A stretch of DNA of 22,211 nucleotides from Auxenochlorella pyrenoidosa (Eukaryota; Chlorophyta; Trebouxiophyceae; Chlorellales; Chlorellaceae): contig KQ482011.1 of assembly GCA_001430745.1 (NCBI GenBank), forward strand, positions 125,570-147,780. The letters are read 5' to 3'. The notes beneath the pieces were generated by a model. The model was not told where the DNA came from and did no database searches. It saw nothing but the letters and a program-made list of their open reading frames with translations. A program made the position numbers and the translations under genes. This document shows, in pieces, positions 480 to 22,211 of this stretch; the first letter of the stretch is position 1; every line of letters starts with the position of its first letter.

Positions 480-3400
480 ATGGCTCCCCATGCTGTCATC
501 GCTGGCGGGGCTGGGGCCACCCTGAGCCTGGACCAAGTTCTGGCGGTCGTGCATGGCGCCCAGGTGGTGCTGGACAGCGCAGCATCGCAGCGCGTGAAGA
601 AGGAGTCTCCACCTCCCAAGTCGTTCCAGCCTGAGCAGCCGCCAGCAGAGGCCCCACCATGCAGCTCGGCCCTTGATCGGCAGCAGTGCCGGGCGGCCCT
701 GTTTTACAAGCTGCTTGCGCTCATCAACGGCAAGAGCGGCGTGCGGCTGGCGGTGGTCGAGGCGCTGGCCGCCCTGCTCAACTCCAGCGCCACGCCCGTG
801 CTGCCGGCAGCAGATGCCGATGCGGCGCCGCTCGCCTCTCTGGCAGCCTTCCTTCAGGGCGTGGGTGCTGCCGCCAGCGCTGATGGGGCGCAGCAGACGG
901 CGGCAGATGCCCTGGCAGCGGCAGGTGTGGAGGCTCCCGGCCTCAGCGCAGCCGAGCGGGCACTGGTGCAGGATGGGCAGAGCGTGTCGGCAGGCACCGC
1001 AGCCATTTGTGTGCAGGCCGGCAAGCTGCTGCTGGCTGTGGCCAACGCCGCAGCGGCGCTGTCGGCAGAGGCGCTGCAGGCAGATGTGAGTGGGCAGGGT
1101 GGCATGCTGCGCGTTTCATTGGTTAGGTTGCCTGGCGGTTGGGGCCAGCTGCTCCGCACTAGCAGTGCTGAACACAGCTGTTGCATGTGGGTGGCGTTGA
1201 GGGGGCTACACAGCAGGATGGGTCGGAGACTCGCAGAGCATGCCAGCGGCCCGCGAAGGGCCGCCTCCCAAGCCGCCACTCGCAGCCCACCCTGCAGCCG
1301 CCTCTGCCGTGGATGGTCCCCTTCATCCGCAGACAGTGGCCCTGGTGCTGGCGCTGCGGCTGTGCTTTCTTGCCCTGGGCGGCCTCACCAGGCTGCCTGC
1401 GTGCCTGCCTGCCCCCTCCCCTCTGCTCCCTGCCCTGCAGGTCAAGGCCCTGGATGCTGATGCTGTAGAGGCGCAGCCCCACAAGGGCGCCCTGGAGGCT
1501 GCCGAGGAGATTCGCGGCCTGCTGGACGGCTCCCGGCAGGTCAACGGCAAGAAGGCCGGCGCCGGCAGCGTGGCGGCGCTCAACTCGGCGCCGCAGGTGG
1601 GCAGGGGAATGACCAGGGCGGGCGCTGGTGGGGCGTCCCTGTCTGTGGCGTCGCCATGCATGCTGGGGCACCCCTGTGTGGTGGTGATAAGCCCAGCCGT
1701 GCTTGCCATGCCTGCGCTTGCTGGCTGCCCGCCGATGGTGCCATGGCCCGATCGGGCGTATGGGGTGCCAATCGCAGCAGGCGCTGCCTCATGACAGGGC
1801 GTTGACGCGTCCTGCTGGCACTGCCCCCTTGCACGGCAGGTGCACGGCGCGCTGCTCGAGGCGCTGAATGCGGCGGCAGCACCCGCCAAGGCCGAGCTGG
1901 CCGCCGCGGCGCTGCCGCCTGCCAAGGATGGGCAGCCGCAGCAGGCGGGCTCCCCCGCCCTGGCTGCGGGCCTGCTGCTGCTGTCCACAGCGTTCCTCAA
2001 GACTGCGGGCCTCAGCCTCAAGCGCAGCGCAGCCATTGCCGGCCGCCTGCCGACTGTCGCGGCAGCGGCGGCAGCAGGCGCGCCGCCGGCGGATGTGGCG
2101 CCCCTGCAGGCGGCGCTGCAGGCGGTGGCGGGCGCGGCGGGCGCGGCGGTTGACGCTGGCAAGCGGCAGGCAGCGGAGACGAGCAGCAAGCTGGCGCTGG
2201 CAGAGCCAGATGAGGCTGCACCCGGCTTGGCGGCTGCGCAGGCGGCCTATGCTGCGCTGCACGCTCTGCGGCAGGCGCTTGCAGTGGAGGCTCTGGCGGC
2301 GGCCACCAGCCTGCGGCTGCAGGAAGGGAAGCCCGCCGACGGTGCCGCCGCTGCGGCGGCGGCGGCGGCAGAGGTGGTAGCGGCAGCGGCCAACGGCGGC
2401 GCGGACGGCGGGAAGAAGAAAGACAAGAAAAAGGACAAGGGCGGGCCGCAGGGCATGCAGTTGGGCAAGGGCGCCGCGCAGCTGCGCGCCTTTGTCGAGC
2501 ACGCAGCCGCGGGCGGCAGCCCGAGCGCCGGCGGTGATGACGTGGCGGGCGCGCTGCGCACGCTGAGCCTGGACGGCGGCGACGCTGACCTGGCGGCGCA
2601 GCTGGCCCGCGTGGCGGCGGCGCTCGACCCGCTGGGCCATGGCCTGGCGCAGCAGCTGGCGGCGCTGCGGGCCGTCATCGAGGCCAACCAGGTGGGCTGC
2701 CTGCCTTTGCTTTTTATCTTTTTCTAAAATGTCGGTAGCGCTCTTGTTTGGCACAGGGGCTGCCGTCCCAGGCACGGGGTCTGATCCCCCCTGCGCCTGC
2801 TGCATTCCCTCCTGCTCCCGCTCGTTAGCTGCGCACCATAAGCTGCAGCGCACGATCGCGTGTGGGCATCCCCGTTCTTGCACTGCAAAGCGGTGGGAAC
2901 GATTGCCAGCCAGGCCGGCACAGGCCCAATTTGGATCCAGTGGGCAACGCTGCTGGCGCCTGCCGATACCAAGAGCTAACCCCCCACCCCCCAACCTCCA
3001 TCCCCCCTCTTCTTTCCCGCCCTTCCCAGGCACGGCGCAAGCCCAAGATTGCCAAGGGCGCGCGAGACTTCATGCCCGACCAGATGGCGATCCGAGAGGT
3101 GGGCGGGGCGCCCAGCAGAGCGGCACAACCGGGCCTACAAACCCCAACCCGCTGAAGATTTCCCTTCCCCTAGCGGCGTGCTGGGTGGGCTGCTGGAGGA
3201 AGCAGCCAGCCTCTTCATGCGCACTGCTGTGACAGGCGCTGCCCGGTTGTTCTCTTGTTGTCCAGGCTCGCCCCAGGATCGCCCTCGTCTGTTTTGTGCA
3301 CAGCCACCCAGGCAGGCCTGCCCACAACCTGCTCCGACCTCTTGGCCCGCTGCTGTCCCTGCGCAGGTGGCCTTCTCCAAGATTACCGGCGTGTTCAAGC

Positions 3401-6400
3401 GCCACGGCGCCGTGTCCATCGACACCCCCGTCTTTGAGCTCAGGTGATGCCGCTGGGGGCATGGGGTCAAGAAGGCACAGCTGCAGGGGGCGTTGAGCCT
3501 TGTGCGTAGGCAGCGCTGTGCGGGTGTGGCACGAGTGCGCGGAGGCAAGAAGGCACAGCTGCGGGGGGCGTCAAGCCTTTTGCGCAGGCTGTGCTGCGTG
3601 GGTTCGGCAGAAGGCCGGCCTGCGCACGCCCGCGGCTGCTTCAATCAGCCCCTTAGCCATGTGCACGGCCGACGGCCCTACACCCGTGCGCCTGCCCCTG
3701 CCCCTCCCGCCCATGCCTGGCCTGAACGCCGCCTGAACGCCGCCTGAACACCCCTGCATTGCCACCGACCCCTGCATTGCCACCGACACGAACGGTCTGC
3801 AGGGAGACGCTGATGGGCAAGTATGGCGAGGACTCAAAGCTAATCTACGACCTGGCCGACCAGGTGGGCCCCCTCAGCCACCCTCGTCCTTCTTTTCTTG
3901 CTCAGGGCACTGCAAACCTGCATTCTGGTTCCGGGCATGTGAGCCGCCAGGAACAATCGGGGGGGAGGGGTTGTTTTCGTTCCGTACCAAACGTTCGTAC
4001 CAGCGCCACAAGGAAAAGAAACAACAGGTATCGCCAGAAGCTCATCTACGACCTGGCAGACCAGGTGGGCCCTCATACTTGTTTGTATTTAGTTGCTTCG
4101 AACGATGCATATTGAGTTTGGCCAGGCTGGCAGACCAGGTGGGGCCCCCTCCGCCAGCCTTGGCTGTCTTTTCTTGGTTGCCTCTGGCTGTTGTCTGTGG
4201 CCTGCGATTGAGCACGTGTGGCAGGGCACACCGCGCGGCGCGCATGCTATTGCTGCGTTGCGGCAGCCATCCTGCACATGCGCAGCTTCCCTCGGCTGCA
4301 TGCCCAACGTTGTTTAGCTTCCGAGCGGAGCAGAGGTACACACCAGCGCACCAGCAGCTGGCAGCTCGGCATGCTGCAGCGCGTTCAAGCATGCCAGTGG
4401 TTTGGCAGGCTGAACGCGTTGCAGCATCCCAAGCCAGCTGCGGGTGCGCTGATGCGCCAGCAGCTCGCTCAGGGTGCAGCATCACTCATCTCTTTGAAAT
4501 GGCCTGGCCGGCCGGCGGCCGCCGTGCAGGGCGGCAAGGCCCGGTCGCTGCGCATATCGTTTGCACCGCCAGCTGGCGCTCACCCCTGCACTAACCCTAA
4601 ATCCGCGCTGAGCTGCCCCCGCAGGGCGCCAAGATCCTGTCGCTGCGCTGCGGTACGATTATGCACCGCCAGCTTGCACCTGACCTCAACCCCTGAACCC
4701 CCCCTACCTGCCCCCTTCAGGGCGGCGAGATCCTGTCGCTGCGGTACGACCTGACTGTGCCCTTTGCGCGCTTTGTGGCGCTGCACGGCGTGGGCAACAT
4801 CAAGCGGTACCACATCGCCAAGGTGCACATGCTTAGATGTTTGTCATTGATTATGTCGCCCCGCTTGAATGTACACACAAGCCCGTGGCCTCTTTGCCTG
4901 CGCCTTCAGCCCACGATCCGGGGGCTGTCTGCCTGCCGTGGTTAAGCTGCGGCTGGTCACTTGCCCTCTGCCGTCCCTGTGTGTGTTGCTGTTTTCAGCT
5001 CGTGCCTGCCATTAGACACTGCCTGCACTGCTCCAGCGGCATTTGCGTTTCCCCGTCCTCCTGCACTACCGCTTTGACAGCGCCTCCCCTCGCCTTGCCA
5101 ACAGCCCCCGCCCGCCCCACCGGGCCCCCCCAACCCCTTGGACAGGTGTACCGCCGCAACCAGCACACATGCACACACACACTCACACACACACACACAA
5201 GACGCACCCCTTACGCCCCCCAGCAGGTGTACCGCCGCGACCAGCACACATGCACACACACACACACACACAAACACACACCCCTTACGCCCCCGGCAGG
5301 TGTACCGCCGCGACCAGCCGCAGATGAACCGCGGCCGCTTCCGCGAGTTCTTCCAGTGCGATTTCGACATTGCGGGCAGCTACCCCGCCATGGTGCCCGA
5401 CGCAGAGGTGCTCAAGGTGCGCGGCATACCCCCGCAGCTTGCTGGTTCCCTGTCAATCTCAGTGCAAAGTCAGTGTCTGGGGCGGTGGCCCGCCATTGTG
5501 CCCATCGCCGAGGTGCCCTTTGCCGGCCCGCCTCCGCTGCAGGTTTCCTCCCAACCCCCCCCGGCCCGCGGAGATCTTGGACAAACTCTGATCCCCTTTC
5601 TTCTCCCTGCCTCCCCTCCCTCCCCCCTCCACACAGGTGCTGGTGGAGATCCTGGGCGACCTCTGATCTCCCTTCCTTGGCTTGGCCACCCTCTCATCTC
5701 CATTCCTTCCCTCTCTTTCTCCTGTCCAGGTGCTGGTGGAGATCCTGGACGACCTGTCGCTGGGCGAGTACGAGGTGAAGCTCAACCACCGGCGGCTGCT
5801 GGACGCCATGCTCGACATCGCGGGGGTGCCGCCCCAGGTGCGCCGCATGCAGCCCTGTCGACTGTTTTTTTCTTTTCTTTTTTCTTTGGGTTCCTGGCAG
5901 GCAGGGAGCCCACACGTCGCTCTTTCCTGGTGCACTTCTACCCCCGTAGGGGGGGAGGGGGGGGGGGTATGCTGCCAGTGCGCAGCTGCCCCGCTGAGCA
6001 GCCTCGCCTGTGGTTCTGGGGCCCGGGCCGCGCTGCAACGCGCACCCTGGTGCCTGTGGCATGGCCGACCGGCCTTGCAGGGAATCTGCCTGCCAGGCCA
6101 CGCCGGCTCATCAAATCGCGCTGCACCCCGACACCTCTGCGGCCCCTTTGCGTCTTTCCCCCTTCAGCGCTTGCGCCCTACTTTCCAACCCCGCAGAAGT
6201 TCCGCCCCATCTGCTCTGCCATCGACAAGCTTGACAAGGAGCCTTGGGAGGCTGTCCGCGAGGGTGAGGCTTGCCTTTCGCAGGCACTCTCACACCCCGC
6301 GCTCGCCATGCTCTGGGTTGTCTGCTGTGGGTGCCCTAGTGCAGCGCTGGGCACGCAGCCCTGGCAGTCGGCTGGCCCTGTTTGGCAAGCACCCTGTGCC

Positions 6401-8903
6401 GCGTGCACATTGCCACCCTGTGGCCTTGGCCTCTGCCCCTGTCGTTGTTGTGAGGAAAGCAAGGTCGTTTTGGTTAGTTCTGCTCCCTTTGCCTCTGCTT
6501 GATGCCTCTGCCAAGGGTGTTTGAGAGGAGAGAGGCCACGCGCGGCCTCCTGAGGTTCCAGGGTTGAGCGCAGCACAGTGTGCTCTCTACCAGCTCCCCC
6601 TTTTCCCCTTGGGCTGCGTGCAGAGATGGTGGAAGAGAAGGGGCTGCCCGGCCACGTGGCCGACCGCATCGGCGAGTTTGTGGTTCTGCGGGGGAAGCCG
6701 ATGGAGCTGCTGGAGAAGCTGAGCGAAGCAGGTGAGGCGGCAGTACCTGGCATACCAGAGGTGGGGTGGTGTAGTGCATGTTCATGCGGCACGGCTCACA
6801 GAGATTGCGCTCTCGCTCTCAGGTGCTGTGCCCCGGGCCACCGCCGACAGCTGCCTTGTACGGACTGCACAGAGCACGGCTGCCTGCATGTCTGCCCCCT
6901 CGCCGTGCCCTGCAGCGCACCCGCTGGCGCAGCACGCCGAGTCGGCAGCAGCGCTGGAGGAGCTGCGCACCCTGTTTGGCTTCCTGGAATCGATGGGCGC
7001 GCTGGGCCCCATCGTGTTTGACCTCAGGTCCGGATGCGCAGGGCAGGCAGCGCGTGCAGCCAGCCGACGCCGGCATGCAGCGCGCGCCTGCACCGGCCCC
7101 TGGCGGCCCTGGGGTGCACGCTGTCATGCGCAGCACCCACCTCGTGGTTGACCAGGTTTGACCGGCATTGACCGGCCCCTCCGTGCCCGCCTACCCTGCA
7201 GCCTCGCGCGCGGCCTGGACTACTACACCGGCGTGATCTACGAGGCCGTGCTCAAGGGGGCTAACGTGGGCAGCATTGCCGCGGGCGGCAGGTGCGCCGC
7301 GCGCCGCGCTCACTGTCGTGCACGGCGCCGCGCCGGCGCTGCACGTCTGGCACGCCTGGCGCAGCGTGCTCCACTGCTCAGCCTCGACCCGCCTCAAGCC
7401 AGCTCCCGCCTCTGCTTCTGCCCGACCCGCCTCGCCCCGGCATCCTTTTCTGTTTCTGCCCAACCCGCCTCGCCCGGGCGCCCGCCCCTGCCTCGCCCCG
7501 ACCCGCCTCGCCCCAGCACCCCTTCTCTTTCTGCCCGACCCGCCTCGCCCCGGCATCCCTTTCTCCCTCTGCCTGCAGGTACGACAAGCTGGTGGGCATG
7601 TTCAGCGATGTGCATGTGTACCTTCAACCCCTCGCCCCAGCACCCCCCTCTTGCCGTGCCCCGCAGGTACGACAGGCTGGTGGGCATGTTCAGCGGCAAG
7701 GAGGTGCCCGCCGTGGGCGTGTCCATCGGCATCGAGCGCGTGTTTGCCATCATGGAGGCCCAGCTGCGCGCGCAGGCGGAGCAGGCGAGGGGGCGAGGAG
7801 GTTCTGGCTGACCGGGTGTCGTGCGCCAACCCGCTTCCTGCGTTGGGACAACCGCAAGGCCCGCTCAACGGCGGGCTTGTGCAGCGCCATGCACGGCCGG
7901 CTTGCAGTCCCCCCCACCCCCCGCCTGCGCTCTGCCCTCTGGCGCAGTTCATGGCGGCCCGCATGCTCGGGCCGATGCCCCTCGCTTGCCAGCCCTCCCG
8001 AGCGCTCCCGCTCCCGCTCCCACCGCGGCCCTGCAGGCGGGCGGTACCATCCGTGAGACAGAGACCGAAGTGCTGGTGGCCTCCATCGGTGGCGGCATGC
8101 AGCCGCGGCGCATGCACATCTGCGCCGACCTGTGGGCTGCGGGAATCAAGGCGGAATTTGGCTACAAGGCCAACCCCAAGATGCCAGACCAGGTGGGGCC
8201 AGGCGCCCTGCCCTGACTGTGTGGTTTGGTTGACCCGAGGTTCCCTGTGCCCTTCGGCTTGCCGCGCCCGGCTCTCACCCGGCCTGCTCCTGTGTTCGTT
8301 GCGTTGCACCCCCGCAGCCGGGCTATGCGCACGCCTTCTGCGCATGGCACCGTCACCTTTCAGTCTGGCTACACCTGGCTCACATCTGGCCCCTCCTTTT
8401 CCCCCCTGTTTGTGCCCCGCAGCTGGGCTACGCGCTGAAGCAGGGCATCCCCTACATGGTGCTGTTTGGGGAGAGCGAGCTGGCGGCGGGGGTGCTCAAG
8501 ATCAAGGACCTGGATGCCGGCACCGAGGAGGCTGTCCCAGAGGTCAGGGGGAACCGAATCTTGCCCAGCTGACGCACGCGTGGCTCCGGCAGCTGTGTGC
8601 TTGGCAGGCTTCCCTGGTTGGGTTCAGACAGCGCGCCAGTCGCGCTTTGCATGGGCATCGCGTGCAGCTCTCTGCGCGCGCCCGCCCTGCCCCCGCCCCC
8701 AGCCCCCACCCTACCCCACCACAACGCACACACACACGCACGTGCACGCGTTTGCACGCGCGCACGCACACACTCTTTCCTACCCACCCCACCCACGCAC
8801 CCAACCCCCGCAGGCGGAGCTGGTGGGGCGGCTGCAGCAGCTGGTCAGGACCAAGGCGGACCGGCGCATCGTGTACCAGCAAAAGGACGAGGGCCAGGCA
8901 TGA
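480..8903 (+). CDS. HisRS: Histidine--tRNA ligase, cytosolic plant type, with ammonia-lyase-like N-terminal domain (17 exons)
   Basis: Class II aminoacyl-tRNA synthetase that charges tRNA-His with histidine using ATP. Exons: 480-1085, 1441-1596, 1840-2691, 3030-3098, 3367-3443, 3803-3863, 4721-4822, 5300-5416, 5730-5837, 6197-6263, 6624-6731, 6916-7027, 7202-7291, 7667-7784, 8037-8192, 8423-8542, 8814-8903. All phases fit and give 1002 residues. Residues 1 to about 538 form an alanine-rich region ([12 protein letters not shown] near the start, a Lys/Asp run near 445) like the histidine/phenylalanine ammonia-lyase-like part of plant HisRS. The catalytic core starts at [10 protein letters not shown] (about 548) and shows [13 protein letters not shown] (motif 2, about 655), ARGLDYYTG (histidine-binding loop, about 814) and GVSIGIERV (motif 3, about 859). 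Exons 15-17 are the anticodon-binding domain. The start ATG sits in GGCCACCATGG. No transit peptide is obvious, so the enzyme is probably cytosolic. Intron 14 has a GC donor at 7785. Exon calls are strong in the core and less certain in the N-terminal part. Confidence 0.93.
3467..3625. repeat. Tandem repeat of about 78 bases in HisRS intron 5
   Basis: The segment beginning CAAGAAGGCACAGCTGC at 3468 recurs at about 3546. The match continues as GGGGGCGTTGAGCCTT against GGGGGCGTCAAGCCTT and then a TGCGTAGGC/TGCGCAGGC stretch. Two diverged copies are visible, lying between exon 5 and exon 6. No coding role is evident. Confidence 0.75.
3719..3790. repeat. Two short tandem repeats just upstream of HisRS exon 6
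   Basis: CCTGAACGCCG is repeated about three times from 3719. It is followed by two near-identical copies of CCCTGCATTGCCACCGAC between about 3751 and 3788. They sit directly before the acceptor of exon 6 (exon start 3803) and replace the usual pyrimidine tract. Confidence 0.7.
4033..4178 (+). repeat. Two degenerate copies of the 3' end of HisRS exon 6 with copied donor sites
   Basis: Exon 6 ends KLIYDLADQ at 3863, followed by the donor GTGGGC. Downstream, 4036-4064 encodes the same peptide with synonymous and silent changes and is again followed by GTGGGCC at 4065. A third, shorter copy ends GCAGACCAG at 4138 with the donor-like GTGGGG at 4139. The intron side also matches: the first and third copies both run on through a CCCCCTC stretch to TCTTTTCTTG. 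These look like tandem duplications spanning the exon-intron border. Confidence 0.85.
4524..4720 (+). repeat. Two degenerate copies of the 5' end of HisRS exon 7 with copied acceptor sites
   Basis: True exon 7 starts at 4721 with GGCGGCGAGATCCTGTCGCTGC after TTCAG. The same edge appears at 4625 (after CCGCAG, as GGCGCCAAGATCCTGTCG) and at 4530 (after TGCAG, as GGCGGCAAGGCCCGGTCG). Spacing is 95 and 96 bases, so the three edges form a ladder. Flanking bases also match, for example a GCACCGCCAGCT segment in both upstream copies. The copy at 4625 is in frame with exon 7 but runs into TGA before reaching it. Confidence 0.85.
5140..5299 (+). repeat. Two copies of the 5' end of HisRS exon 8 joined to CA microsatellites
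   Basis: True exon 8 begins at 5300 with GTGTACCGCCGCGACCAG. Nearly identical edges with copied CAG acceptors begin at 5146 and 5227. Both read VYRR(N/D)Q and then turn into CACACATGCACACACA repeats (about 5161-5200 and 5242-5281). Spacings are 81 and 73 bases. Use of either copied acceptor would shift the frame (offsets 154 and 73). Confidence 0.88.
5486..5520 (+). repeat. Degenerate copy of the 3' end of HisRS exon 8
   Basis: CCCGCCATTGTGCCCATCGC followed by CGAGGTGC matches the exon 8 end, where CCCGCCATGGTGCCCGACGC is followed by AGAGGTGC (about 5384-5411). It lies about 107 bases further on, inside intron 8. It has lost the terminal CTCAAG and the donor that follow in the real exon. Confidence 0.7.
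5562..5729 (+). repeat. Two copies of the 5' end of HisRS exon 9
   Basis: Exon 9 starts at 5730 with GTGCTGGTGGAGATCCTGG. A near-perfect copy with its own ACACAG acceptor starts at 5637, and a more decayed one without an acceptor aligns from about 5562 (GAGATCTTGGAC). Both copies continue into CTCTGATC, so each would place TGA in frame soon after the copied acceptor. The offset from the first good copy to the true exon is 93 bases, a multiple of three. Confidence 0.88.
5949..5967 (+). repeat. Guanine run in HisRS intron 9
   Basis: A run of guanines interrupted once by adenine, preceded about 65 bases earlier by a thymine-rich tract (5873-5888). Such a run could form a quadruplex in the transcript or be length-uncertain in the assembly. 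No other role is visible. Confidence 0.7.
7377..7666 (+). repeat. Minisatellite and copied exon 14 start in HisRS intron 13
   Basis: A unit of roughly 40 bases built around CCCGACCCGCCTCGCCCC and a following pyrimidine run (TTTCTGTTTCTGC type) occurs about five times between 7383 and 7571. The last unit ends in CTGCAG and a copy of the exon 14 start at 7579 (GTACGACAAGCTGGTGGGCA). The true exon starts at 7667 with GTACGACAGGCTGGTGGGCA, and a further CTCGCCCCAGCACC remnant lies between them. The copy is 88 bases upstream, so its use would shift the frame. Confidence 0.87.
8309..8345 (+). repeat. Copied acceptor and 5' end of HisRS exon 16
   Basis: CCCCGCAG followed by CCGGGCTATGCGC at 8318 resembles the true acceptor and exon start at 8423 (CCCCGCAG, CTGGGCTACGCGC). 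The two starts are 105 bases apart, a multiple of three, and the frame between them has no stop codon. Splicing to the upstream site would therefore add 35 residues. Confidence 0.7.
8722..8778. repeat. Alternating purine-pyrimidine tract in HisRS intron 16
   Basis: CA dinucleotides mixed with CG steps (ACACACACGCACGTGCACGC and onward) run for about 50 bases before the pyrimidine tract of exon 17. This is a microsatellite, and in principle a Z-DNA-prone sequence. Confidence 0.75.
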
Positions 8904-9000
8904 GCGAGAGCAGCGTATGCATGCGCCAGGGCGCCCGCGGCGTGGCTGCCATGGCAGCGCTGTTGCTTTGGCTGGGGGCCTGCCGCGCCCAGCACACAGA

Positions 9001-9005
9001 TGTAA
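9001..9005 (+). terminator. Polyadenylation signal TGTAA for HisRS
   Basis: TGTAA, the usual chlorophyte poly(A) signal, lies 98 bases after the HisRS stop codon. The cleavage site would be expected some 10-20 bases downstream. Confidence 0.6.
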
Positions 9006-9273
9006 CTCATGCGCCGGCCGCCACGGGCAGTGGGCATGCATCCAGGTACAGCAAAGCGCAGCATGACCCTAAAGAATACCCAGTTTGTTGTGGTAATTCA
9101 TGAGGTATGGCCACATTCAGGTAGAGCACTCCTCATGCCTGTGAGCGCGGAGTAGGTGCAACCGCACCCACTTCTGCAACGGCTAGGACTGGGTGCCTGT
9201 TGTTTGTGCCCAGCTGCCATCAGCTTGGTAAGAGGGAGCACTGTAGTGCGTTACCTGCCGAGGCGGGAATGCT

Positions 9274-9300
9274 CTGGCCGCCGCGAAGCACGGCGGCCAG
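9274..9300. repeat. Perfect 10-bp hairpin
   Basis: The arms CTGGCCGCCG (9274-9283) and CGGCGGCCAG (9291-9300) are exact reverse complements with the 7-base loop CGAAGCA. Confidence 0.85.
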
Positions 9301-9573
9301 GCACAGCGCCAACCGCTGCTCATGGGCTGCTGCTGCTGCCACTGCCTGCCACCTTTGCATCCAGCTTGACTGCCATGGCATCTCTTACACGATGCCACAC
9401 TTCCAGCCTGGTGCTCAAGCCAGGCCAGGAGCTAGGCTGCCCAGCAGCCTGGCCTGGAAAGAAGAAGGTATGGATAATGTAGCAGATGGGGAGGGAACTA
9501 ACATACATCCGGCCAGTGGCGGCCTGCCGTACCTGGCGGCATCGGCGGGAAAGCTAGCTAGACGCGGTATAGT

Positions 9574-9600
9574 AGCTGGCCAGGCCACACCTGGCCAGCT
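9574..9600. repeat. Perfect 11-bp hairpin
   Basis: The arms AGCTGGCCAGG (9574-9584) and CCTGGCCAGCT (9590-9600) are exact reverse complements with the 5-base loop CCACA. It shares the CTGGCC core with the hairpin at 9274. Confidence 0.85.
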
Positions 9601-10389
9601 TCCCTAGCCCAATATCACGTTCGTACTCTTTCTTTCTTTTCTTTTCGAGCTAGGCACAGGGCAGACTGGACAAGGAAGGTGTGTAGGCTGAACGTGATCA
9701 CGCAAGCAGCGCACCGCGCAGTGCGCACACAGGCCAGGTGTTGGCCGGCGTTTACCAGAACCCCTTCCCTTCCAATTGCAGATTTGAAGTGCGGTAAAAT
9801 CGTAGCAAGCCTTCATTTCCAATTGCCGACAGCTCATCGCACATAGACAATGCCCGTCACCGCTGCCGCCACTGCCCTGCTACTGCCCGGCCACAGCTGC
9901 TGGCACCTGCCTCAGATGTCGGCGGCCGCATACTCGATCGCAATCTCAGGGCCTCCTAATGCGTAGCAGCGCCTTGCAGGGCCGTTCCCGTGTCCTCCCC
10001 GCAGCATTCGCCCCAGCACGCTCCGGGAATTCCCCCTCTCAGGAATCGCCCTCAAGCCGCTCTTTTTCCTTGACGCGCTGGAGCCTGCAGAGCCGGTCTG
10101 TGACGAGAGCCTGAGGTGAGCAGGGGCTCAGTCCCGATGTTCGTGATCATTGCCCTTTTTCTTGCCTGGGCAGGCCTAGCAGGCTGCCATTTGTGCGGTC
10201 CGCGTGGTTAAAAAAATGATCCGATGGCTGGCCAGTCAGATGGCGTATGAGCGGCTTGCTGCTGGGCATAAAAGCGGGCTTTTTGCAGCTGGTTCCAGCT
10301 TGAGGTGTTGTGCATGGCCGCAGGTTGATGCAGTAGGACGCTGCTTCTGAACACTGCTGCCTGTTTGCTAGCTGCCGCTTCCTGTCTTG

Positions 10390-10416
10390 TGTCGCAAGTT
10401 CCGTTGCAATTAGACA
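10390..10416 (+). repeat. Dispersed hairpin motif, copy 1
   Basis: TGTCGCAA, loop GTTCCG, TTGC, five bases AATTA, then GACA. The outer TGTC/GACA and inner GCAA/TTGC segments can pair, leaving a 5-base bulge. It lies upstream of the small gene, in its 5' UTR or a 5' intron. Related copies occur near 13395, 16311 and 19558. Confidence 0.75.
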
Positions 10417-10480
10417 GACTGGAAACACAAGCGGCTGCTCCCACCCATTTGCTTCAAATCTCCCTATCTCGTGCAGAACC

Positions 10481-10961
10481 ATGGCGCAGTTGTTCACAGA
10501 AGCAGAGCTGAGGGCCATGGACCCAGCTGTCGCCAATCGAGTTCGTGACATTCAGCACGAGCTGGATGCGCTGAGGTAAGGTAAAGAGGTATGATGACCA
10601 TCACTAAGTGATGGTCATCATGTGGGATGGATTGTGCTTGAATCGAACGACAACACGGCGGTCCGTTGCCTCGTCATCTGGTTGCGTGCCTTTATGATGC
10701 AGGTTTCGCCACCTAGTCCCGGCGATCCAAGCCGAATTTGAGGCAATCCCCAAGGGCGGCATTGACCGGGACGTCCTGGCAGCCAAGCTGCTGAAGCTGG
10801 TGCCCTGGGGAGGCAGAACCACGGACGTTAACACCCCGTCCAATCGCATGCAGCAGAAGCTTGAGGACTTGAAGGCGGCTGGCGCGTTGAAGCGCAACAA
10901 CAACACCTACACCTTGGTCCATGTGCCAAAGCCTACCGAGATTGCCGCATGGTGGTCATGA
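10481..10961 (+). CDS. Conserved-looking small protein of unknown function (117 residues, two exons)
   Basis: I do not recognise this protein. Exons 10481-10575 and 10703-10961 join through a good donor (GTAAGG) and a GATGCAG acceptor. The protein starts MAQLFTEAELRAMDPAV and ends IAAWWS. The first 32 residues look helical and polar. The second half (AAKLLKLVPWGG, then MQQKLEDLKAAGALKRNNN and TYTLV) has the spacing of a winged-helix fold: a helix, a Gly-containing turn, a basic wing and a strand. That is inference only. The start lies just after an intron-like CGTGCAG acceptor (about 10477). An in-frame open segment ending at a GTGAGC donor near 10115 could be spliced on, so the true protein may be longer at its N-terminus. 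It ends about 300 bases from the stop of the convergent IMPL2 gene. Confidence 0.75.
10591..10621. repeat. Perfect 31-base palindrome inside the intron of the small gene
   Basis: The arms of 15 bases (ATGATGACCATCACT and AGTGATGGTCATCAT) are exact reverse complements around a single adenine at 10606. It starts 15 bases after the 5' splice site of a 127-base intron. In RNA it would fold into a tight hairpin close to the donor. Confidence 0.9.
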
Positions 10962-11058
10962 ACCGCTGTCCACAGGCACTGTCCACGGGCGTATTCTCCG
11001 CCAAGACCATACCTTGTTCCCGATGCCTAAATGAACTTGGGCAAGTTGTCCTTTTGTA

Positions 11059-11063
11059 TTACA
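11059..11063 (-). terminator. Polyadenylation signal TGTAA for IMPL2
   Basis: Read on the minus strand this is TGTAA, 198 bases beyond the IMPL2 stop codon (11261-11263). It is the first clear copy seen downstream of that gene. Confidence 0.5.
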
Positions 11064-11078
11064 GTTCCACGCTTTCCT

Positions 11079-11083
11079 TGTAA
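11079..11083 (+). terminator. Polyadenylation signal TGTAA for the small gene
   Basis: TGTAA lies 118 bases after the stop of the small gene. Together with the opposing signal at 11059-11063, it implies that the two convergent transcripts overlap by some tens of bases at their 3' ends. Confidence 0.55.
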
Positions 11084-11260
11084 GCAGTACACAGTCATGC
11101 AGTGGGGGCAATTTCCCGCCCAAGCCGTCAACTTGCGTAAGAGCAGGGTGTGCAGGATCGGAACCAGCATGTGAACCTAGCAACACAAATTCCCGGGCAT
11201 GCAGTATCAACTGGAGTGCGAGGCAACTAGCAAGGAGGAGAGCGGTCACTTGGTACTACA

Positions 11261-14101
11261 TCACCGCCACTGCAGCAGCTCAAGTGCCTGCTGGTGCGCG
11301 CGGGCATCCCCTGCCGCCAGCACCTCGCCGCTGCAGGCAGTCACGTCCCCCTGCGGCGGAGCGCAGCGGGGAGGAGGGGGGGCGGGCAGGCGGAGGCGCG
11401 TAACCGCCTGGTCGCGCCTGGGCTGCAGGATATCAAAACAGCATGCATGCAGCCCTCCCTGTGTGCACTTCTCCGGGCGCTCTGCTGCCCGGGTCGCCAC
11501 GCGCCACCCATCCCTTTGGCCGCCTCATCCCCTGGCCTAATGCGCTCCACAGCCCATGTCTGAACCAATGCCGCTGCGCACCGCCCGGCCTGCATACAGC
11601 CTGCCTCCCTCCCCCGCTCACATGGCTGTCCACCGCCCACCGCAGCGGCTGGCCACGCCAGTCGGTCACCACGCCGCCAGCCCCCTGGATAATGGGCACC
11701 AGTGCCATGTAATCATACCTGCGAGGCAGGGGAGCATGCGCAGGAGGATCACGTGGAGGGGGCCGCGGATGTAATTGCGGAAAACTGGCGCCAGGGTAAC
11801 CCGCCAGCATGCCGGCAGCGGGCGCCTGCCTGCCCATGTGCTGCATGCACGACACCCAGCCGCCGCCACTCGCAGCCCGAGCACATGCAGGGCTAGTACC
11901 GCACCCTCCGCCCCTAGCTCCATGTCGGCATCTTCCAGAGGCCGGGCAGGCAAACAGACGCGGCACCTGGCAGGGCAGCGTTCACGAGCATGCACGGGCT
12001 GTAGTGGAAGCATGCTCTGCGGGTGCACCACGGTGCACATGCCCTGGCGCACTCACGGCTTCAAGTCTGCCTCCACTACAAGGTCGGCATAGCCAGCTGC
12101 CAGCAGGCCATAGGCGTAGCAGTCGCAGCCATACATGGGGATGCGCACTGCGGGGGCGCACAAACAGCAAAGGGACCGTTAATGACCAGAGGACACATGG
12201 GAATGCGCACTGCGGGCGCGCATGAGCAGCGCGCCGCCTGGCGCTCCCAGGCGCTGTAGATGGCCAGGGCTTCGAGGGGCGAGGGCGTGCAGAGGCGAGG
12301 CATGCGAGGAAGGAGAGGGGTCGCACTGTACTCGCACGCGCACGGATCCAGAGGGCTTGCCACAGGCTCGTCAGCCGTGCTGAACAAGCATGCGCAATGC
12401 CATGTAGGCTGCAGCCGCCCACGGCCACTGGACCATGCAGGCAAGGCCCCGCGGGCCCATTGTACGCTGCCAGCTAACACGCGGCATAGAAAAGGGAGGT
12501 CGCCCGAAAGTCAATACAGAAATACAGAAACTTGTTGTCATGTATTTGATTCAAAAGTTGATTCAAAAAAACAATTGGCTGCTTGCCTGCATCCCGCACG
12601 CGGTTGAAGGCCGCCTCGGTCTCCCCCGAGAACATGTGCGGCGTGGTGGCATACAGGTAGGCGTCGCTGATGGCGCCGCACGCGCGCGTGCTGATGGGCG
12701 CGCCGTTGAGCGTCGACAGCTGCCCCGCCACGCCCAGCCAGCGCTCCTGCCAAACCAATCCATCAACGAATCAATCAATCAATCACGCCAGGGGCGGGGT
12801 GCGCGGAGCTGGGCGCGTTGATGGCGGCAGCAGCAGGGCAGCTCATACGCAGCACGGCCTCCCTTCCCTTTCCCCCTCCCGGGAACTTGGGGCGGTGGAC
12901 GATGGCCACCAAGCTGGCAAGCAGGGGCAGCAAGGCAGCCAGCATTCTGCTCATGGACTGGCCGGCCCCCACCTTGAGGATGGGCTGGTCGATGATGCCC
13001 AGCACGGGCGTGCCGCGGTGCAGCAGCGCTATGAGGGTGCCGAACAGCGGCTTGCCTGGGGTGGGGGTGGGGTGGGAAGTTGGGTGTGTGTGTGGTGGTG
13101 GTGGTGGTGGTGGTGGGAGGGGGGTGGGGCTGGCATGGATGGAAGGGTGACTGATCAGGGCTGTGCAGCAGTGAGGCGGGGGTGTGGCCAGGGCTGAGAG
13201 GGTTGGCTGCATCTCCGACTCTGTGCACGGCCTTGTGGCATGCCTGGCTGCCTTGGCCCACAGGGCAGCCCATTCAAACCGGGACTGTGCCACCTCAGAG
13301 TACAGCGCAGTGAGCGATGCAAGGCAGCAGGCAGCTGGTCTGCATGGCAGGCCGTGGCAGGCATGATGGACAAGTGGCCCGCCCCTCCTGTCTGTGTCGC
13401 AAGTTCCGGTGCGGTTAGACAGCCTTCAACCCAAACAAGCAAGCACGAAACTGCCCGTGCCCCCCCAGCGCCTGCCTGTGATGAAGCTCTTGGTGCCGTC
13501 GATAGGGTCGATGACCCACAGCCACTCGCTGCTTCCGCCGCCAGCCAGGTAGCCCTGCTCCTCTCCAAAGATGGCATGGTCTGGGCAGCGCTCGGCCAGC
13601 AGCGCGCGCACCGCCGCCTCTGCTTCCCGGTCCGCAATGGTCACAGGGCTGGCGTCGCTCTTCACGTCCACCGGCACCGGGGTGCGGAAGTAGCGCGCCG
13701 TCACCTCGGCCGCTGCGTCGGCCAGGCTGTGCGCGACGCCAATCAGCTCGGGTGTGACAGCGGTGGTGGCGGCGGCGGCAGAGGAAGATGCATCAGGCCC
13801 TGCCGAGGCTAGCACCACGGCCGCCATACGTCGCCGTCGGCTGAGGGCGGGACACCTGAGGGATTAAATGCGCTGAGTGTAAGCACACCAGGCTGAAGGT
13901 TAGAACATCAGGTTGGAGGGTGCATTGCTGAGGGCAGCAGGCACCAGCGAGAGTAGGGGTGGCGGCAGTGGCGGCGGCGGTGGCGGCAGGCAGTCTAGAC
14001 TTCGTAAGCGGAATTGAGCACCTGGGTACGGATCGAGTCGATGTACGCTGCTGGCAGACAGGGGGACAGCTCCTGTCAAGGCCCAGGGCGGCTGCACGCA
14101 T
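11261..14101 (-). CDS. IMPL2: Histidinol-phosphatase, plastid, inositol-monophosphatase-like (IMPL2/HISN7 type), 7 exons
   Basis: Expected to remove phosphate from histidinol phosphate, the penultimate stage of histidine synthesis, with Mg. Exons in transcript order: 14101-14022, 13855-13476, 13055-12973, 12746-12587, 12147-12057, 11718-11622, 11350-11261, giving 326 residues. Metal-site motifs of the inositol monophosphatase fold are present: GEEQG (about 124) and WVIDPIDGTKSF (about 141), then YDYMALVPIIQGAGG (about 266). The stretches ITGKPLFGTLIALL, GCDCYAYGLLAAGYADLV and the C-terminal HQQALELLQW are typical of plant IMPL2 rather than generic IMPases. The first exon plus the start of the second encodes MRAAALGLDR onward to RRRRMAAVV, a basic, Ser/Thr-containing transit-peptide-like leader; a start at 13827 is the alternative. 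Introns 2 and 4 have GC donors. It is divergent from LysA and convergent with the small gene. Confidence 0.9.
12180..12215 (-). repeat. Copied acceptor and 5' end of IMPL2 exon 5
   Basis: On the minus strand, GCCCGCAG followed by TGCGCATTCCCATGT (copied start 12209) duplicates the true acceptor and start at 12147 (CCCCGCAG, TGCGCATCCCCATGT). The match extends into the intron side (GCGC, then a GCTG/GCTC segment). The copy is 62 bases upstream in the transcript, so using it would shift the frame. Confidence 0.8.
12766..12785. repeat. AATC microsatellite in IMPL2 intron 3
   Basis: About four and a half ATCA units lie next to the acceptor region of IMPL2 exon 4 (exon start 12746 on the minus strand). 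Confidence 0.8.
13083..13117. repeat. GT/GGT microsatellite in IMPL2 intron 2
   Basis: Four to five GT units followed by about seven GGT units. On the transcribed strand this is a CCA/CA tract upstream of the exon 3 acceptor (exon start 13055). A similar CCA-rich tract precedes LysA exon 8 at about 16925-16985. Confidence 0.8.
13395..13421 (+). repeat. Dispersed hairpin motif, copy 2
   Basis: TGTCGCAA, loop GTTCCG, GTGC, GGTTA, GACA. It matches copy 1 at most positions and both are preceded by CCTGTCT. It lies in IMPL2 intron 2, antisense to that gene. Confidence 0.75.
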
Positions 14102-14388
14102 ACTGGTCTCGTTGAGGAGGTCGCGAAATGACTGTTGTCAATCGTGAAATTTCAGATCGGAAGCAAGCGATATATAGGATCGATCAACTTCGACCATCGG
14201 GGCGCCAACGGCACTAGGAGACTCGCAGCAGAGCACAGCAGCTGCACGAGGCTGGCTGTGCGGAGTGCACCGCCCTCTTGCGCGCCTGCATCTATTGTCG
14301 CACCGGTGCAGCTGTTCTGAACAAGTCTTTTTGAGCAGCGCTAGACCCGTGGGTGGAGCAGGGCCTCCCTTCCTTGAGTCCAGCAACC
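14102..14388. promoter_or_regulatory. Probable bidirectional promoter between IMPL2 and LysA
   Basis: The 287 bases separate the start codons of two divergent genes and must hold both 5' UTRs and promoters if the starts are right. GATATATAGG at 14169-14178 contains TATATA at 14171-14176, about 70 bases from the IMPL2 ATG. Read on the minus strand it could serve as the IMPL2 TATA box, and on the plus strand it lies 213 bases before the LysA ATG. No other element is clear. Confidence 0.5.
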
Positions 14389-20052
<5,664 letters not shown>

Positions 20053-20305
20053 GGGGCGCCCCAGGGGCGTGGGAGCGCCGACGGGGGGGCAGGCAGCGCC
20101 CCGCTGGGCGGGGCGCAGCGAGCAGGCGCTCAGGCGTGCTAGGCATGGTGCCAGCAGCTTGCCGCCGCCCGCAGCCTGGCCGTCCCTCCCAGCAGCCTGA
20201 TGGCCCCTCCTCGTGCTGGTGTGCATGCGCCCCTTGATTCTTTTGGATCTGCAGCACTTCCCTTTCTCCTGACACAGCAGCAGAGCAGAGCGCAGCGGTC
20301 TGCTA

Positions 20306-20310
20306 TGTAA
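20306..20310 (+). terminator. Polyadenylation signal TGTAA for LysA
   Basis: TGTAA lies 254 bases after the LysA stop codon at 20050-20052 and is the first clear copy downstream. Confidence 0.6.
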
Positions 20311-20745
20311 ACCCTTGGCACTGGCATGCGACACAGTGACGAATGTGTTACGGCGACGGGCATGTGCGGGCCCTGGCTAGCAGCAATCTCGTTGCAATTC
20401 TGGTGTGGGGGGTGGTTTAAAACCGTCACAAATACGTAAGTCACACCTGATGTGCCATGTACAGTGGAATGGAAGCTTGCACAGCCGCCCAGAGGCAAGG
20501 GAACGGCTGAGCAGGGACGGGAGCAGAGGCAGCTGCAACAGGGCGTGAGTGCCCAACGCGTGCAGGAGCGGGGCCCAACAGACCTTTCATTGCTTCTCTA
20601 ACGAACTGCGAGGGCCAGAAACGCACCTGGTGCACCCTGCAGCCCACATGGCCACCCGCATGCTGCGCGCCCGAGGGATTGGCAGCAGGGCAGGCGGCCA
20701 GACACCTTGCCCCGGCCGATGCTTTGCTGTTCATCGCCAATCAAC
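20311..20745. other. Spacer and promoter region upstream of the translocator gene
   Basis: No protein-like frame is seen. The stretch includes an AT-richer patch (TTTAAAACC near 20415) and should carry the promoter and 5' UTR of the gene starting at 20746. No core element is convincing. Confidence 0.4.
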
Positions 20746-22211
20746 ATGGCTCTGTGCATCACAGCCCCCAGCAGCCGCCTGGCGCCGGTGTGCAGCAGCC
20801 GGTCAGGGCTTCGGCCCCTGGCCGCGGCGAGGCCCGCACTGGTGAGCCCATCAGCGATCGGATGCCCATCGGGCGGGTACCGGGCCCCACCGGGGCGGCG
20901 GGCCCCTCGCGGAGGCACTGGGGCTCTTCTCAAGCAAGCTGGCGCTGCCTTGTCTGCCGCAGGTGCCGGCCGGCCTGCGTGCATCTCCCCTGGTGCGCAC
21001 AAGCTTGGTTGAGCAGCAGCGGCGCGCCGTTCAGGCCCGTGCGCAGCAGCAGCCGGTCGTCGCTGCGGCAGCAGACGAGGCGCAGCTGGACCCCCTGGAG
21101 AGGTGAGATCGGGCTCTTGGTATCGGCAGGGGTTAAAGGATCGCGTCCGATCAGCAGGTGGCAGCTGCAGCAGGTGCGTGGCTGTTGGCACCGGGCGGGG
21201 GCGCCTGGGCAGGAAGAGCACAGCCTCAGCCTTTCTCAGATGCCAGATGCATGGACAAACTGCGCATCTGTGTGTGTTTGTGAAGACAAGAGCAGAATGG
21301 GATGCAGGTGGTGCAGACCTAGCAAACCATGACAAGACGGTGGGCAGTGTGCTCAGCCCGCTGCCATGTGCGCTGCCTCCTCATCTGCAGCACCTTTGCC
21401 AAGGTGGTGGGTCCCAAGGCCGCCCCCACGGTGGTGACCCTGGCCTTCATCACCTTCTGGTACGCCCTCAACATCGCGTTCAACCTGCAGGCAAGGGCCA
21501 GCGGAAGCGTTGACGCCTAGCTTGCGCTCCCTGCTTGCTCGCCCCTGACAGCGCTGTTCCTGCTGCGGCTTGTCGAGGGGGGTCGAGCAGTTGCCGCCGC
21601 AGCATAGCTTCACTGCGACAGAAGTTTTACTGGAGTCGCTGGCATGGAGTCATTGGGAATTGGCAGGATGTGTGTTGCGTGGCATGCAGTCGCCCCTACC
21701 CGGCGAGGGCTGCTGCTCACCAATACCCCATGCCCTGCCCTCCATATCGCTTTGCCTGCCGCGCAGAACAAGGTCATGCTCAACTACTTCCCCTGCCCAC
21801 CTGAACGCGTCCTTGCTACCCCTGTTTCTTTCTTCTCTTGCCCTGCAGAACAAGGTCATCTTCAACTACTTCCCCTACCCCTGGTTTGTGTCCACCGTGC
21901 ACGTGGTGGTGGGCGCGCTGTACTGCATTGTCGCCTACCTGCTGGGAGCCAAGAAGGCCTCCTTTGAGCGGGTGAGAGTCGAGGCAGGGCAGGGCAGCGC
22001 GGGAGGGGCAGTTACTGGAAGAGGAGGAGAGGGGGAGGGTTTTTGTTGCCGCCCCGGTCGGGGGTGAGAGCAACTGGTGCTGACCCCCAGCCCCCGTGCT
22101 GCCGACTTGCAACACCCAAGGCACGAGAGCCCCGGCGGCGACGCCCCCACCGCTGGCATCATTCTGGGCGGCATGCTTGTGAGCGCCCCGACCCTCCGGC
22201 TGGCCCAACCC
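20746..22211 (+). CDS. Triose-phosphate/phosphate translocator, plastid inner envelope, 5' part only
   Basis: A plastid phosphate translocator that would exchange triose phosphate for inorganic phosphate. Exons seen: 20746-20841, 20963-21102, 21391-21490, 21849-21971, giving 153 residues. The rest lies beyond the window. Residues 1-78 (MALCITAPSSRLAPV onward) form an Ala/Arg/Ser-rich transit peptide. The mature part begins with a hydrophobic segment TLAFITFWYALNIAFNL, then NKVIFNYFPYPWFVS and a second hydrophobic segment VHVVVGALYCIVAYLLG. The NYFPYP(W/Y)FVS stretch favours the triose-phosphate class over the glucose-6-phosphate or phosphoenolpyruvate classes. The intron after exon 3 has a GC donor (CAG then GCAAGG). 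The last exon ends at a GTGAGA donor at 21972. Nothing translator-like was found between 21972 and the window end, so that part is intron. Confidence 0.85.
21762..21800 (+). repeat. Copied acceptor and 5' end of translocator exon 4
   Basis: CGCAG followed by AACAAGGTCATGCTCAACTA and CTTCCCCTGCCC (start 21767) duplicates the true exon start at 21849 (AACAAGGTCATCTTCAACTA, CTTCCCCTACCC). The copy keeps about 30 bases with very few changes. It is 82 bases upstream, so its use would shift the frame. Confidence 0.9.

What the first reader, a model, noticed from the sequence alone, without database searches (positions are those of the whole stretch)
3838..21880. Ghost exon edges: introns repeatedly carry tandem copies of the adjoining exon border, splice site included
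Seen directly at HisRS exon 6 (3' end), exon 7, exon 8 (both ends), exon 9, exon 14 and exon 16, at IMPL2 exon 5 and at translocator exon 4; weaker cases occur in LysA. Each copy keeps 15-30 exon bases plus the neighbouring intron bases and a CAG acceptor or GTG donor, and lies 60-200 bases from the true site. This affects unrelated genes on both strands, so it looks like a genome-wide process: local tandem duplication across exon-intron borders, followed by decay. Known models propose that duplication of AGGT-containing segments can create introns. Here the same kind of event may lengthen introns and seed decoy or alternative splice sites. I know of no description of this as a recurrent pattern in such algae, but cannot search.
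Basis: partly seen in the sequence, partly recalled or inferred. Interest (0 to 1): 0.85.

Follow-up and report, generated by a model that had tools for sequence, protein, structure and literature searches.

The report
Duplicated exon edges in algal introns
In one histidyl-tRNA synthetase gene of a Micractinium-like green alga, small tandem duplications have repeatedly copied the edges of exons, mostly with their splice sites, into the neighbouring introns; this is a known kind of event, unusually concentrated in this gene, and a small sample of the rest of the genome does not show it.

Summary
The core observation is real. With curated gene models, 7 of 76 exon edges have a strong copy in their own intron, against 0 of 2676 non-adjacent and 0 of 76 reverse-complement comparisons. 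A border-crossing search finds 12 copies at 9 borders, 7 of them in HisRS; 11 of 12 keep AG or GT. LysA cases are not supported. Nor is the genome-wide claim: in 192 predicted introns elsewhere, 0 of 384 edges are strong, although 200 of 210 planted copies were found. Best explanation: ordinary local tandem duplication that sometimes spans a splice border, tolerated because the outer site still gives the right mRNA; the inner copy then decays. Exon parts diverge 8.4% and intron parts 18.1%, close to the expected 1:2; codon positions are hit evenly, and borders are crossed about as often as chance predicts. The same anatomy is published for a potato gene (PMC4974935). Unexplained: the roughly tenfold excess in HisRS, and an annotated Chlorella sorokiniana HisRS 'isoform B' carrying the 7-residue duplication that the exon-14 copy would give.

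The parts
480..8903 (+). HisRS gene, 17 exons, 16 introns; carries 10 of the 12 border copies
   Evidence: Translation gives 1002 aa; 97% identical to a Micractinium sp. CCAP 211/92 protein over residues 540-1002
3837..3871 (+). Source: end of exon 6 (3803-3863) plus donor
4038..4072 (+). Ghost of exon 6 donor border (27 exon + 8 intron bp, 33 of 35 identical, GT kept); also preceded by an AG, so it can be read as a 27-nt in-frame mini-exon
4127..4176 (+). Second ghost of exon 6 donor border (12 exon + 37 intron bp aligned)
   Evidence: range
3904..4040 (+). Low-copy dispersed element lying between the first two copies in intron 6; probably stretches their spacing from about 80 to 201
   Evidence: Three other places in the genome at 76-84%; the effect on spacing is inferred
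4595..4658 (+). Ghost of exon 7 acceptor border, 96 bp upstream of the true site
   Evidence: range
4518..4552 (+). More diverged ghost of exon 7 acceptor border, 191 bp upstream
   Evidence: range
5180..5245 (+). Ghost of exon 8 acceptor border, 73 bp upstream (exon part 19 of 19, intron part 41 of 45)
   Evidence: range
5134..5164 (+). Second ghost of exon 8 acceptor border, 154 bp upstream
   Evidence: range
5489..5549 (+). Ghost of exon 8 donor border; donor lost (TT)
   Evidence: range
5594..5662 (+). Ghost of exon 9 acceptor border, 93 bp upstream (exon part 25 of 26)
   Evidence: range
7543..7607 (+). Ghost of exon 14 acceptor border, 88 bp upstream (exon part 28 of 29)
   Evidence: range
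7579..7599 (+). 21-nt potential mini-exon inside the exon 14 ghost; inclusion would read GGRYDKLVGMYDRLVGMF, the kind of insertion annotated in C. sorokiniana HisRS
8310..8330 (+). Weak ghost of exon 16 acceptor border, 105 bp upstream
   Evidence: score 32; range worked out from the ghost site at 8318 and the 8 intron and 13 exon bases aligned
12195..12230 (-). Ghost of IMPL2 exon 4 acceptor border (true exon 12057-12147), 62 bp away
21757..21798 (+). Ghost of translocator exon 4 acceptor border (true exon from 21849), 82 bp upstream
3468..3609 (+). Intron-only tandem duplication in HisRS intron 5 (period 78)
7385..7573 (+). Intron-only tandem array in HisRS intron 13 (period 38)

Best explanation
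These are remnants of ordinary local tandem duplications, mostly of about 60-105 bp, arising inside or across the ends of introns. When a duplicated unit spans an acceptor (intron tail plus exon head) or a donor (exon tail plus intron head), the outermost site still yields the original mRNA, so the event is tolerated, the intron grows, and an inner 'ghost' border is left to decay. Shown by the calls: the copies, repeated intron parts beside the exon parts, decay without coding constraint, a pooled frequency of border crossing at chance level, and the concentration in HisRS relative to the sample. Inferred: the splicing outcome, and replication slippage or end-joining as the mutational source. 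Why HisRS is a hotspot is not explained.
For: Own-intron matches 7 of 76 edges, against 0 of 2676 non-adjacent and 0 of 76 reverse-complement. The match crosses the border in 12 copies. Aligned exon-part positions are 240 of 262 identical and intron-part positions 227 of 277: divergence 8.4% and 18.1%, ratio about 2.1, as expected if only the true exon is constrained (11 copies, the weakest dropped, gaps not counted). Exon-part mismatches over the 12 copies fall 5, 7, 6 by codon position and are 13 non-synonymous, 5 synonymous. Pooled duplication pairs cross a border 7 of 20 times, expected 7.8. Intron-only tandem duplications lie beside them. Use of the ghost site would shift the frame or add a stop in 10 of 12 cases.
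Against: The two data sets behave differently: border crossing is 7 of 11 in the window (P = 0.12 for an excess) and 0 of 9 in the sample (P = 0.015 for none), and offsets are longer in the window (median 88 against 46, p = 0.002), so the pooled agreement may hide two regimes. All 9 ghost acceptors score below their true site, which could mean selection against decoys rather than pure neutrality, although the score model was trained on the true sites; of the 3 donor copies one equals, one exceeds and one has lost its site. An annotated C. sorokiniana protein suggests a duplication at the same exon 14 border in another genus, which a purely random process would not predict.
Confidence: 0.8

Rival explanations
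1. A genome-wide process that specifically duplicates exon borders.
For: Copies in three unrelated genes on both strands; about a twofold excess of weak adjacent matches in the sample (8 against 2.75 at score 26; crossing 11 against 5.5 at score 27 and 2 against 0.7 at score 33).
Against: 0 of 384 sample edges strong, with 200 of 210 planted copies detected; LysA 0 of 28 edges; border crossing not above chance when pooled.
Confidence: 0.07
2. The HisRS ghosts are kept for a function: alternative or poison splice sites, or mini-exons, that tune HisRS output.
For: 11 of 12 copies keep the splice dinucleotide; 10 of 12 would give frameshift or stop if used; C. sorokiniana 'isoform B' carries the 7-residue insertion that the exon 14 mini-exon would give.
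Against: Ghost exon parts decay evenly over codon positions, mostly non-synonymously; the predicted protein of Micractinium sp. CCAP 211/92 lacks the insertion; the C. sorokiniana insertion may be a gene-prediction artefact.
Confidence: 0.08
3. Chance similarity in GC-rich, low-complexity sequence.
For: Weak matches such as LysA intron 4 (score 21) lie in the range seen for non-adjacent or shuffled introns of other edges.
Against: 0 strong matches in 2676 non-adjacent comparisons; 0 repeat pairs in locally shuffled sequence against 29 real, window and sample together.
Confidence: 0.02
4. Assembly error.
For: None found.
Against: Copies differ from the source by 0-19% in the exon part, and the one with an identical exon part differs in its intron part.
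Confidence: 0.01

Closest known systems
Tandem duplication across an intron-exon boundary in the potato RdRp gene (Ma, Lan and Niu 2016, PMC4974935; abstract and Results and Discussion section read)
   Same: A tandem duplication covering intron tail plus exon head, copies slightly diverged, acceptor and polypyrimidine tract inherited, and a second, intron-only 83-bp tandem duplication in the same gene.
   Different: In potato a new intron is supported by RNA reads and phylogeny; here only the anatomy is seen, the inner copy is taken to be fully intronic, and several borders of one gene are hit.
[quoted passage not shown] passages read)
   Same: Local tandem duplication places extra splice sites in a gene.
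   Different: That model starts from duplication of an exonic segment and makes a new intron; here existing borders are copied and, as modelled, the intron count does not change.
Tandem-duplication introns in Drosophila (PMC2891723; passages read)
   Same: Duplicated splice-site-like segments inferred from sequence; the authors report a premature stop in all 18 such intron sequences.
   Different: New intron positions in coding sequence, found by comparing species.

Membership tests
Tandem duplication across an exon-intron border | Two or more head-to-tail copies that include exon and intron bases in register | tested here: met
   12 copies crossing 9 borders; period-73 array at exon 8
Tandem duplication across an exon-intron border | Splice site carried in the copy | tested here: met
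   11 of 12 copies; the exon 8 donor copy has lost it
[quoted passage not shown]
   The predicted Micractinium sp. CCAP 211/92 protein shows no insertion; C. sorokiniana shows a 7-residue duplication at the exon 13/14 junction; relatives' DNA was not looked at
[quoted passage not shown]
   No RNA reads
Genome-wide border-duplication process | Excess of strong own-intron border copies across genes | tested here: not met
   0 of 384 sample edges, 200 of 210 planted copies detected; weak matches show a twofold excess

The most novel reading that the evidence does not exclude
HisRS is a long-lived hotspot in the Chlorella-Micractinium group where exon borders are repeatedly duplicated. At exon 14 the ghost works, in at least one genus, as an alternatively included 21-nt mini-exon that duplicates seven residues: an incipient intron gain, or a regulated decoy, caught in progress.
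Probability: 0.12. Interest if true: 0.65.

Novelty: new member of a known kind. Interest (0 to 1): 0.35.

Why it matters
It gives a compact set of border duplications of graded divergence in one gene, with a measured ratio near 1:2 of exon-part to intron-part divergence and a simple expectation for border crossing. That is a usable null model for claims about intron growth and intron gain by tandem duplication. It also flags a likely source of gene-prediction errors: the simple gene finder used here called several ghosts as small exons, and an annotated C. sorokiniana HisRS contains the insertion that one of them would give.

Tried and rejected
Rejected: chance similarity and LysA ghosts. Dispersed repeats as the source of the ghosts: searches of the own genome with introns 6 and 13 report no place elsewhere that matches a ghost unit, only a low-copy element inside intron 6; intron 7 has twelve other matches, nearly all to its CA-rich stretches, one of which (C58, 77%) spans a ghost unit. 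The tool warns that no match does not show rarity, and introns 8, 15, translocator 3 and IMPL2 3 were not searched. A tail pyrimidine excess as the cause of the HisRS hotspot was not significant (0.66 against 0.61, p = 0.055). Tandem-like insertions in relatives: 0 among the best 120 proteins each for LysA and IMPL2, 2 among the best 120 for HisRS beyond residue 530; the second, P0204, is a repeat of about 80 residues in a protein predicted from an assembled transcript.

Corrections: my first IMPL2 model had exons 5 and 6 wrong; relatives' proteins showed it and it was corrected without changing the strong count. still use the old model, which does not touch the intron 3 case. One search wrote the gene finder but its test stopped in a wrong Python version. 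One search had a self-overlap fault that printed 20-base self matches, and it ended in an error; its counts are not used, only alignment ranges of copies that one search also reports. One search missed the motif copy at 10390 that one search lists.

Literature: the Chlorella variabilis NC64A genome paper is not held, so whether it describes such copies is unchecked. Ten searches listed no paper whose title or abstract describes recurrent border copies in green algae; only the top of each list was shown and only open-licence papers are searched.

Limits: the sample rests on a home-made gene finder trained from the window. After retraining, 37 of 42 hand-modelled window exons were exact, two of the hand models being wrong at that time; run on the window it recovers all six strong HisRS edges and misses the translocator one. 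The sample comes from two contigs plus eight 3-kb loci, with about 96 kb of 274 kb reading N. Before counting, 85 short or weak predicted exons were dropped, and introns with N or over 1500 bases were left out. The 210 planted copies came from three draws of 70 of the 192 introns. The window was chosen because it looked odd, so p-values against the sample overstate the case for a hotspot, and the repeat pairs within HisRS are not independent. No structure prediction was run.
Full report
What is in the window. The window lies in a 51.6-Mb genome of 65 contigs. Its LysA protein is 96% identical to one of Micractinium tetrahymenae and its HisRS, over residues 540-1002, 97% identical to one of Micractinium sp. 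CCAP 211/92, so it is a Micractinium-like green alga. This gives 38 introns and 76 exon edges.

The observation. Each 40-base exon edge was aligned to its own intron, as its reverse complement to the same intron, and to non-adjacent introns. Seven of 76 own-intron scores reach 34; none of 76 reverse-complement (maximum 33) and none of 2676 non-adjacent comparisons (maximum 30) do. Six of the seven are in HisRS introns 6, 7, 8 and 13 and one in translocator intron 3. A second search with 45 exon plus 45 intron bases, requiring the match to cross the border, finds 12 copies at 9 borders with score 27 or more, adding second copies at exons 6, 7 and 8, IMPL2 exon 4 and a weak case at HisRS exon 16. 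At a threshold of 33 the same test on 2676 non-adjacent pairs gives 4 matches, 2 of them crossing. LysA has none.

The copies are tandem units. They include repeated intron sequence next to the exon part: 45 aligned intron bases with 19 exon bases at exon 8, 41 with 26 at exon 9, and 36 with 29 at exon 14; others carry only 8-11 intron bases. Tandem Repeats Finder sees the exon 8 array as period 73. Intron-only repeats stand in introns 5 and 13. The larger spacing at exon 6 (201) spans a low-copy dispersed element at about 3904-4040 with three other places in the genome, which probably inserted later.

How the copies decay. Over the 11 copies scoring 33 or more, aligned exon positions are 240 of 262 identical and intron positions 227 of 277. 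Divergence is 8.4% and 18.1%, close to the 1:2 ratio expected if the ghost drifts while the true exon is held and both intron copies drift. Mismatches in the exon part fall 5, 7 and 6 on the three codon positions, 13 non-synonymous and 5 synonymous, over 12 copies. The ghosts show no sign of coding constraint. At exon 14 the ghost has a lysine codon that the four relatives fetched (P0121, P0123, P0126, P0132) also have, while the true exon has arginine, so there the true exon has changed. Eleven of 12 copies keep AG or GT. All 9 ghost acceptors score below their true site; of 3 donor copies one equals, one exceeds and one has lost its site. Using a ghost would shift the frame in 8 of 12 cases and add an in-frame stop in 2 more; two (exon 6 donor at 201, exon 16 at 105) would stay open.

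Is it genome-wide? About 179 kb of readable DNA from the same genome was held outside the window: searches (200 kb, much of it N; 50 kb, partly N) and eight 3-kb loci. A gene finder trained on the window and retrained on the sample gave 192 usable introns. Of 384 edges, 0 reach 32 and 1 reaches 30, against 0.25 and 0.65 expected from non-adjacent introns. As positive controls, the same pipeline recovers all six strong HisRS edges but not the translocator one, and 200 of 210 artificial ghosts planted in the sample are found at score 32. A scan that needs no gene models gives 11 local repeat pairs of score 20 or more in the 22-kb window against 9 in the sample. Against my reading, weak matches are about twice as common as expected in the sample: 13 against 6.1 at score 24 and 8 against 2.75 at score 26; crossing matches 11 against 5.5 at score 27, 3 against 2.3 at 30 and 2 against 0.7 at 33. 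These may be old, decayed copies or local composition. Strong ghosts are thus rare in the sample, while HisRS is rich in them (6 of 32 edges).

Is border crossing special? If tandem units of length d fall anywhere that leaves the mRNA intact, the crossing fraction is 2(d-1)/(intron length-1). The 20 pairs of window and sample should cross 7.8 times; 7 do. Taken apart, the window has a slight excess (7 against 4.6, P = 0.12) and the sample none (0 against 3.15, P = 0.015). Crossing may be selected against in most genes, since it makes a decoy. HisRS introns hold 9 pairs where the sample rate predicts 0.85, but these are not independent events and the window was picked for its oddity.

A lead from relatives. 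Among the best 120 HisRS relatives, the annotated C. sorokiniana 'histidyl-tRNA synthetase isoform B' has a tandem insertion YDKLVGM exactly at the exon 13/14 junction. Including bases 7579-7599 of the window as a mini-exon would make the corresponding insertion here, and the gene finder proposed that mini-exon unasked. At the exon 8/9 junction C. vulgaris has a 15-residue and P0137 a 24-residue insertion, neither tandem-like. LysA and IMPL2 relatives show no tandem-like insertion (0 of 120 each).

Known or new. A tandem duplication crossing an intron-exon boundary, with inherited splice signals, is described in a potato gene together with a second, intron-only tandem duplication (PMC4974935; abstract and Results and Discussion). 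Tandem genomic duplication is reviewed as a route of intron gain (PMC3443670, passages) and reported in Drosophila (PMC2891723, passages). The present case is a new set of examples, notable for its number in one gene. The ten searches named under Tried and rejected listed no paper whose title or abstract describes recurrent border copies in green algae; they cover open-licence papers only.

Verdict. The HisRS concentration and the C. sorokiniana insertion are the parts worth following.

Noticed in passing
window 10390-10417 and 13395-13422; diverged copy at 19557-19584: A dispersed 28-bp motif (TGTCGCAAGTTCCGNTGCRRTTAGACAG) has 242 matches with up to 3 mismatches in the genome, on both strands, and none for the reversed-pattern control. 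The copies at 13395 and 19557 lie in introns; one copy in the sample lies outside predicted genes. It may be a very short mobile element or a shared signal.
   Followed up: partly
HisRS intron 14, translocator intron 3, IMPL2 introns 1 and 3: GC-AG introns: 4 of 38 curated introns. The predicted sample gives 43 of 192, which includes predictor noise. This looks high.
   Followed up: no
window 3904-4040: Low-copy dispersed element in HisRS intron 6, three other places at 76-84% identity.
   Followed up: partly
window 9849-10961: A possible small gene between HisRS and IMPL2, seen by eye, with plausible exons near 10477-10575 and from 10703; it was not modelled or identified.
   Followed up: no
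sample loci L006, L009-L033: The 9 tandem pairs of score 20 or more in sampled introns have shorter offsets (33-63) than most of those in HisRS, and none crosses a predicted border although 3.15 are expected.
   Followed up: partly
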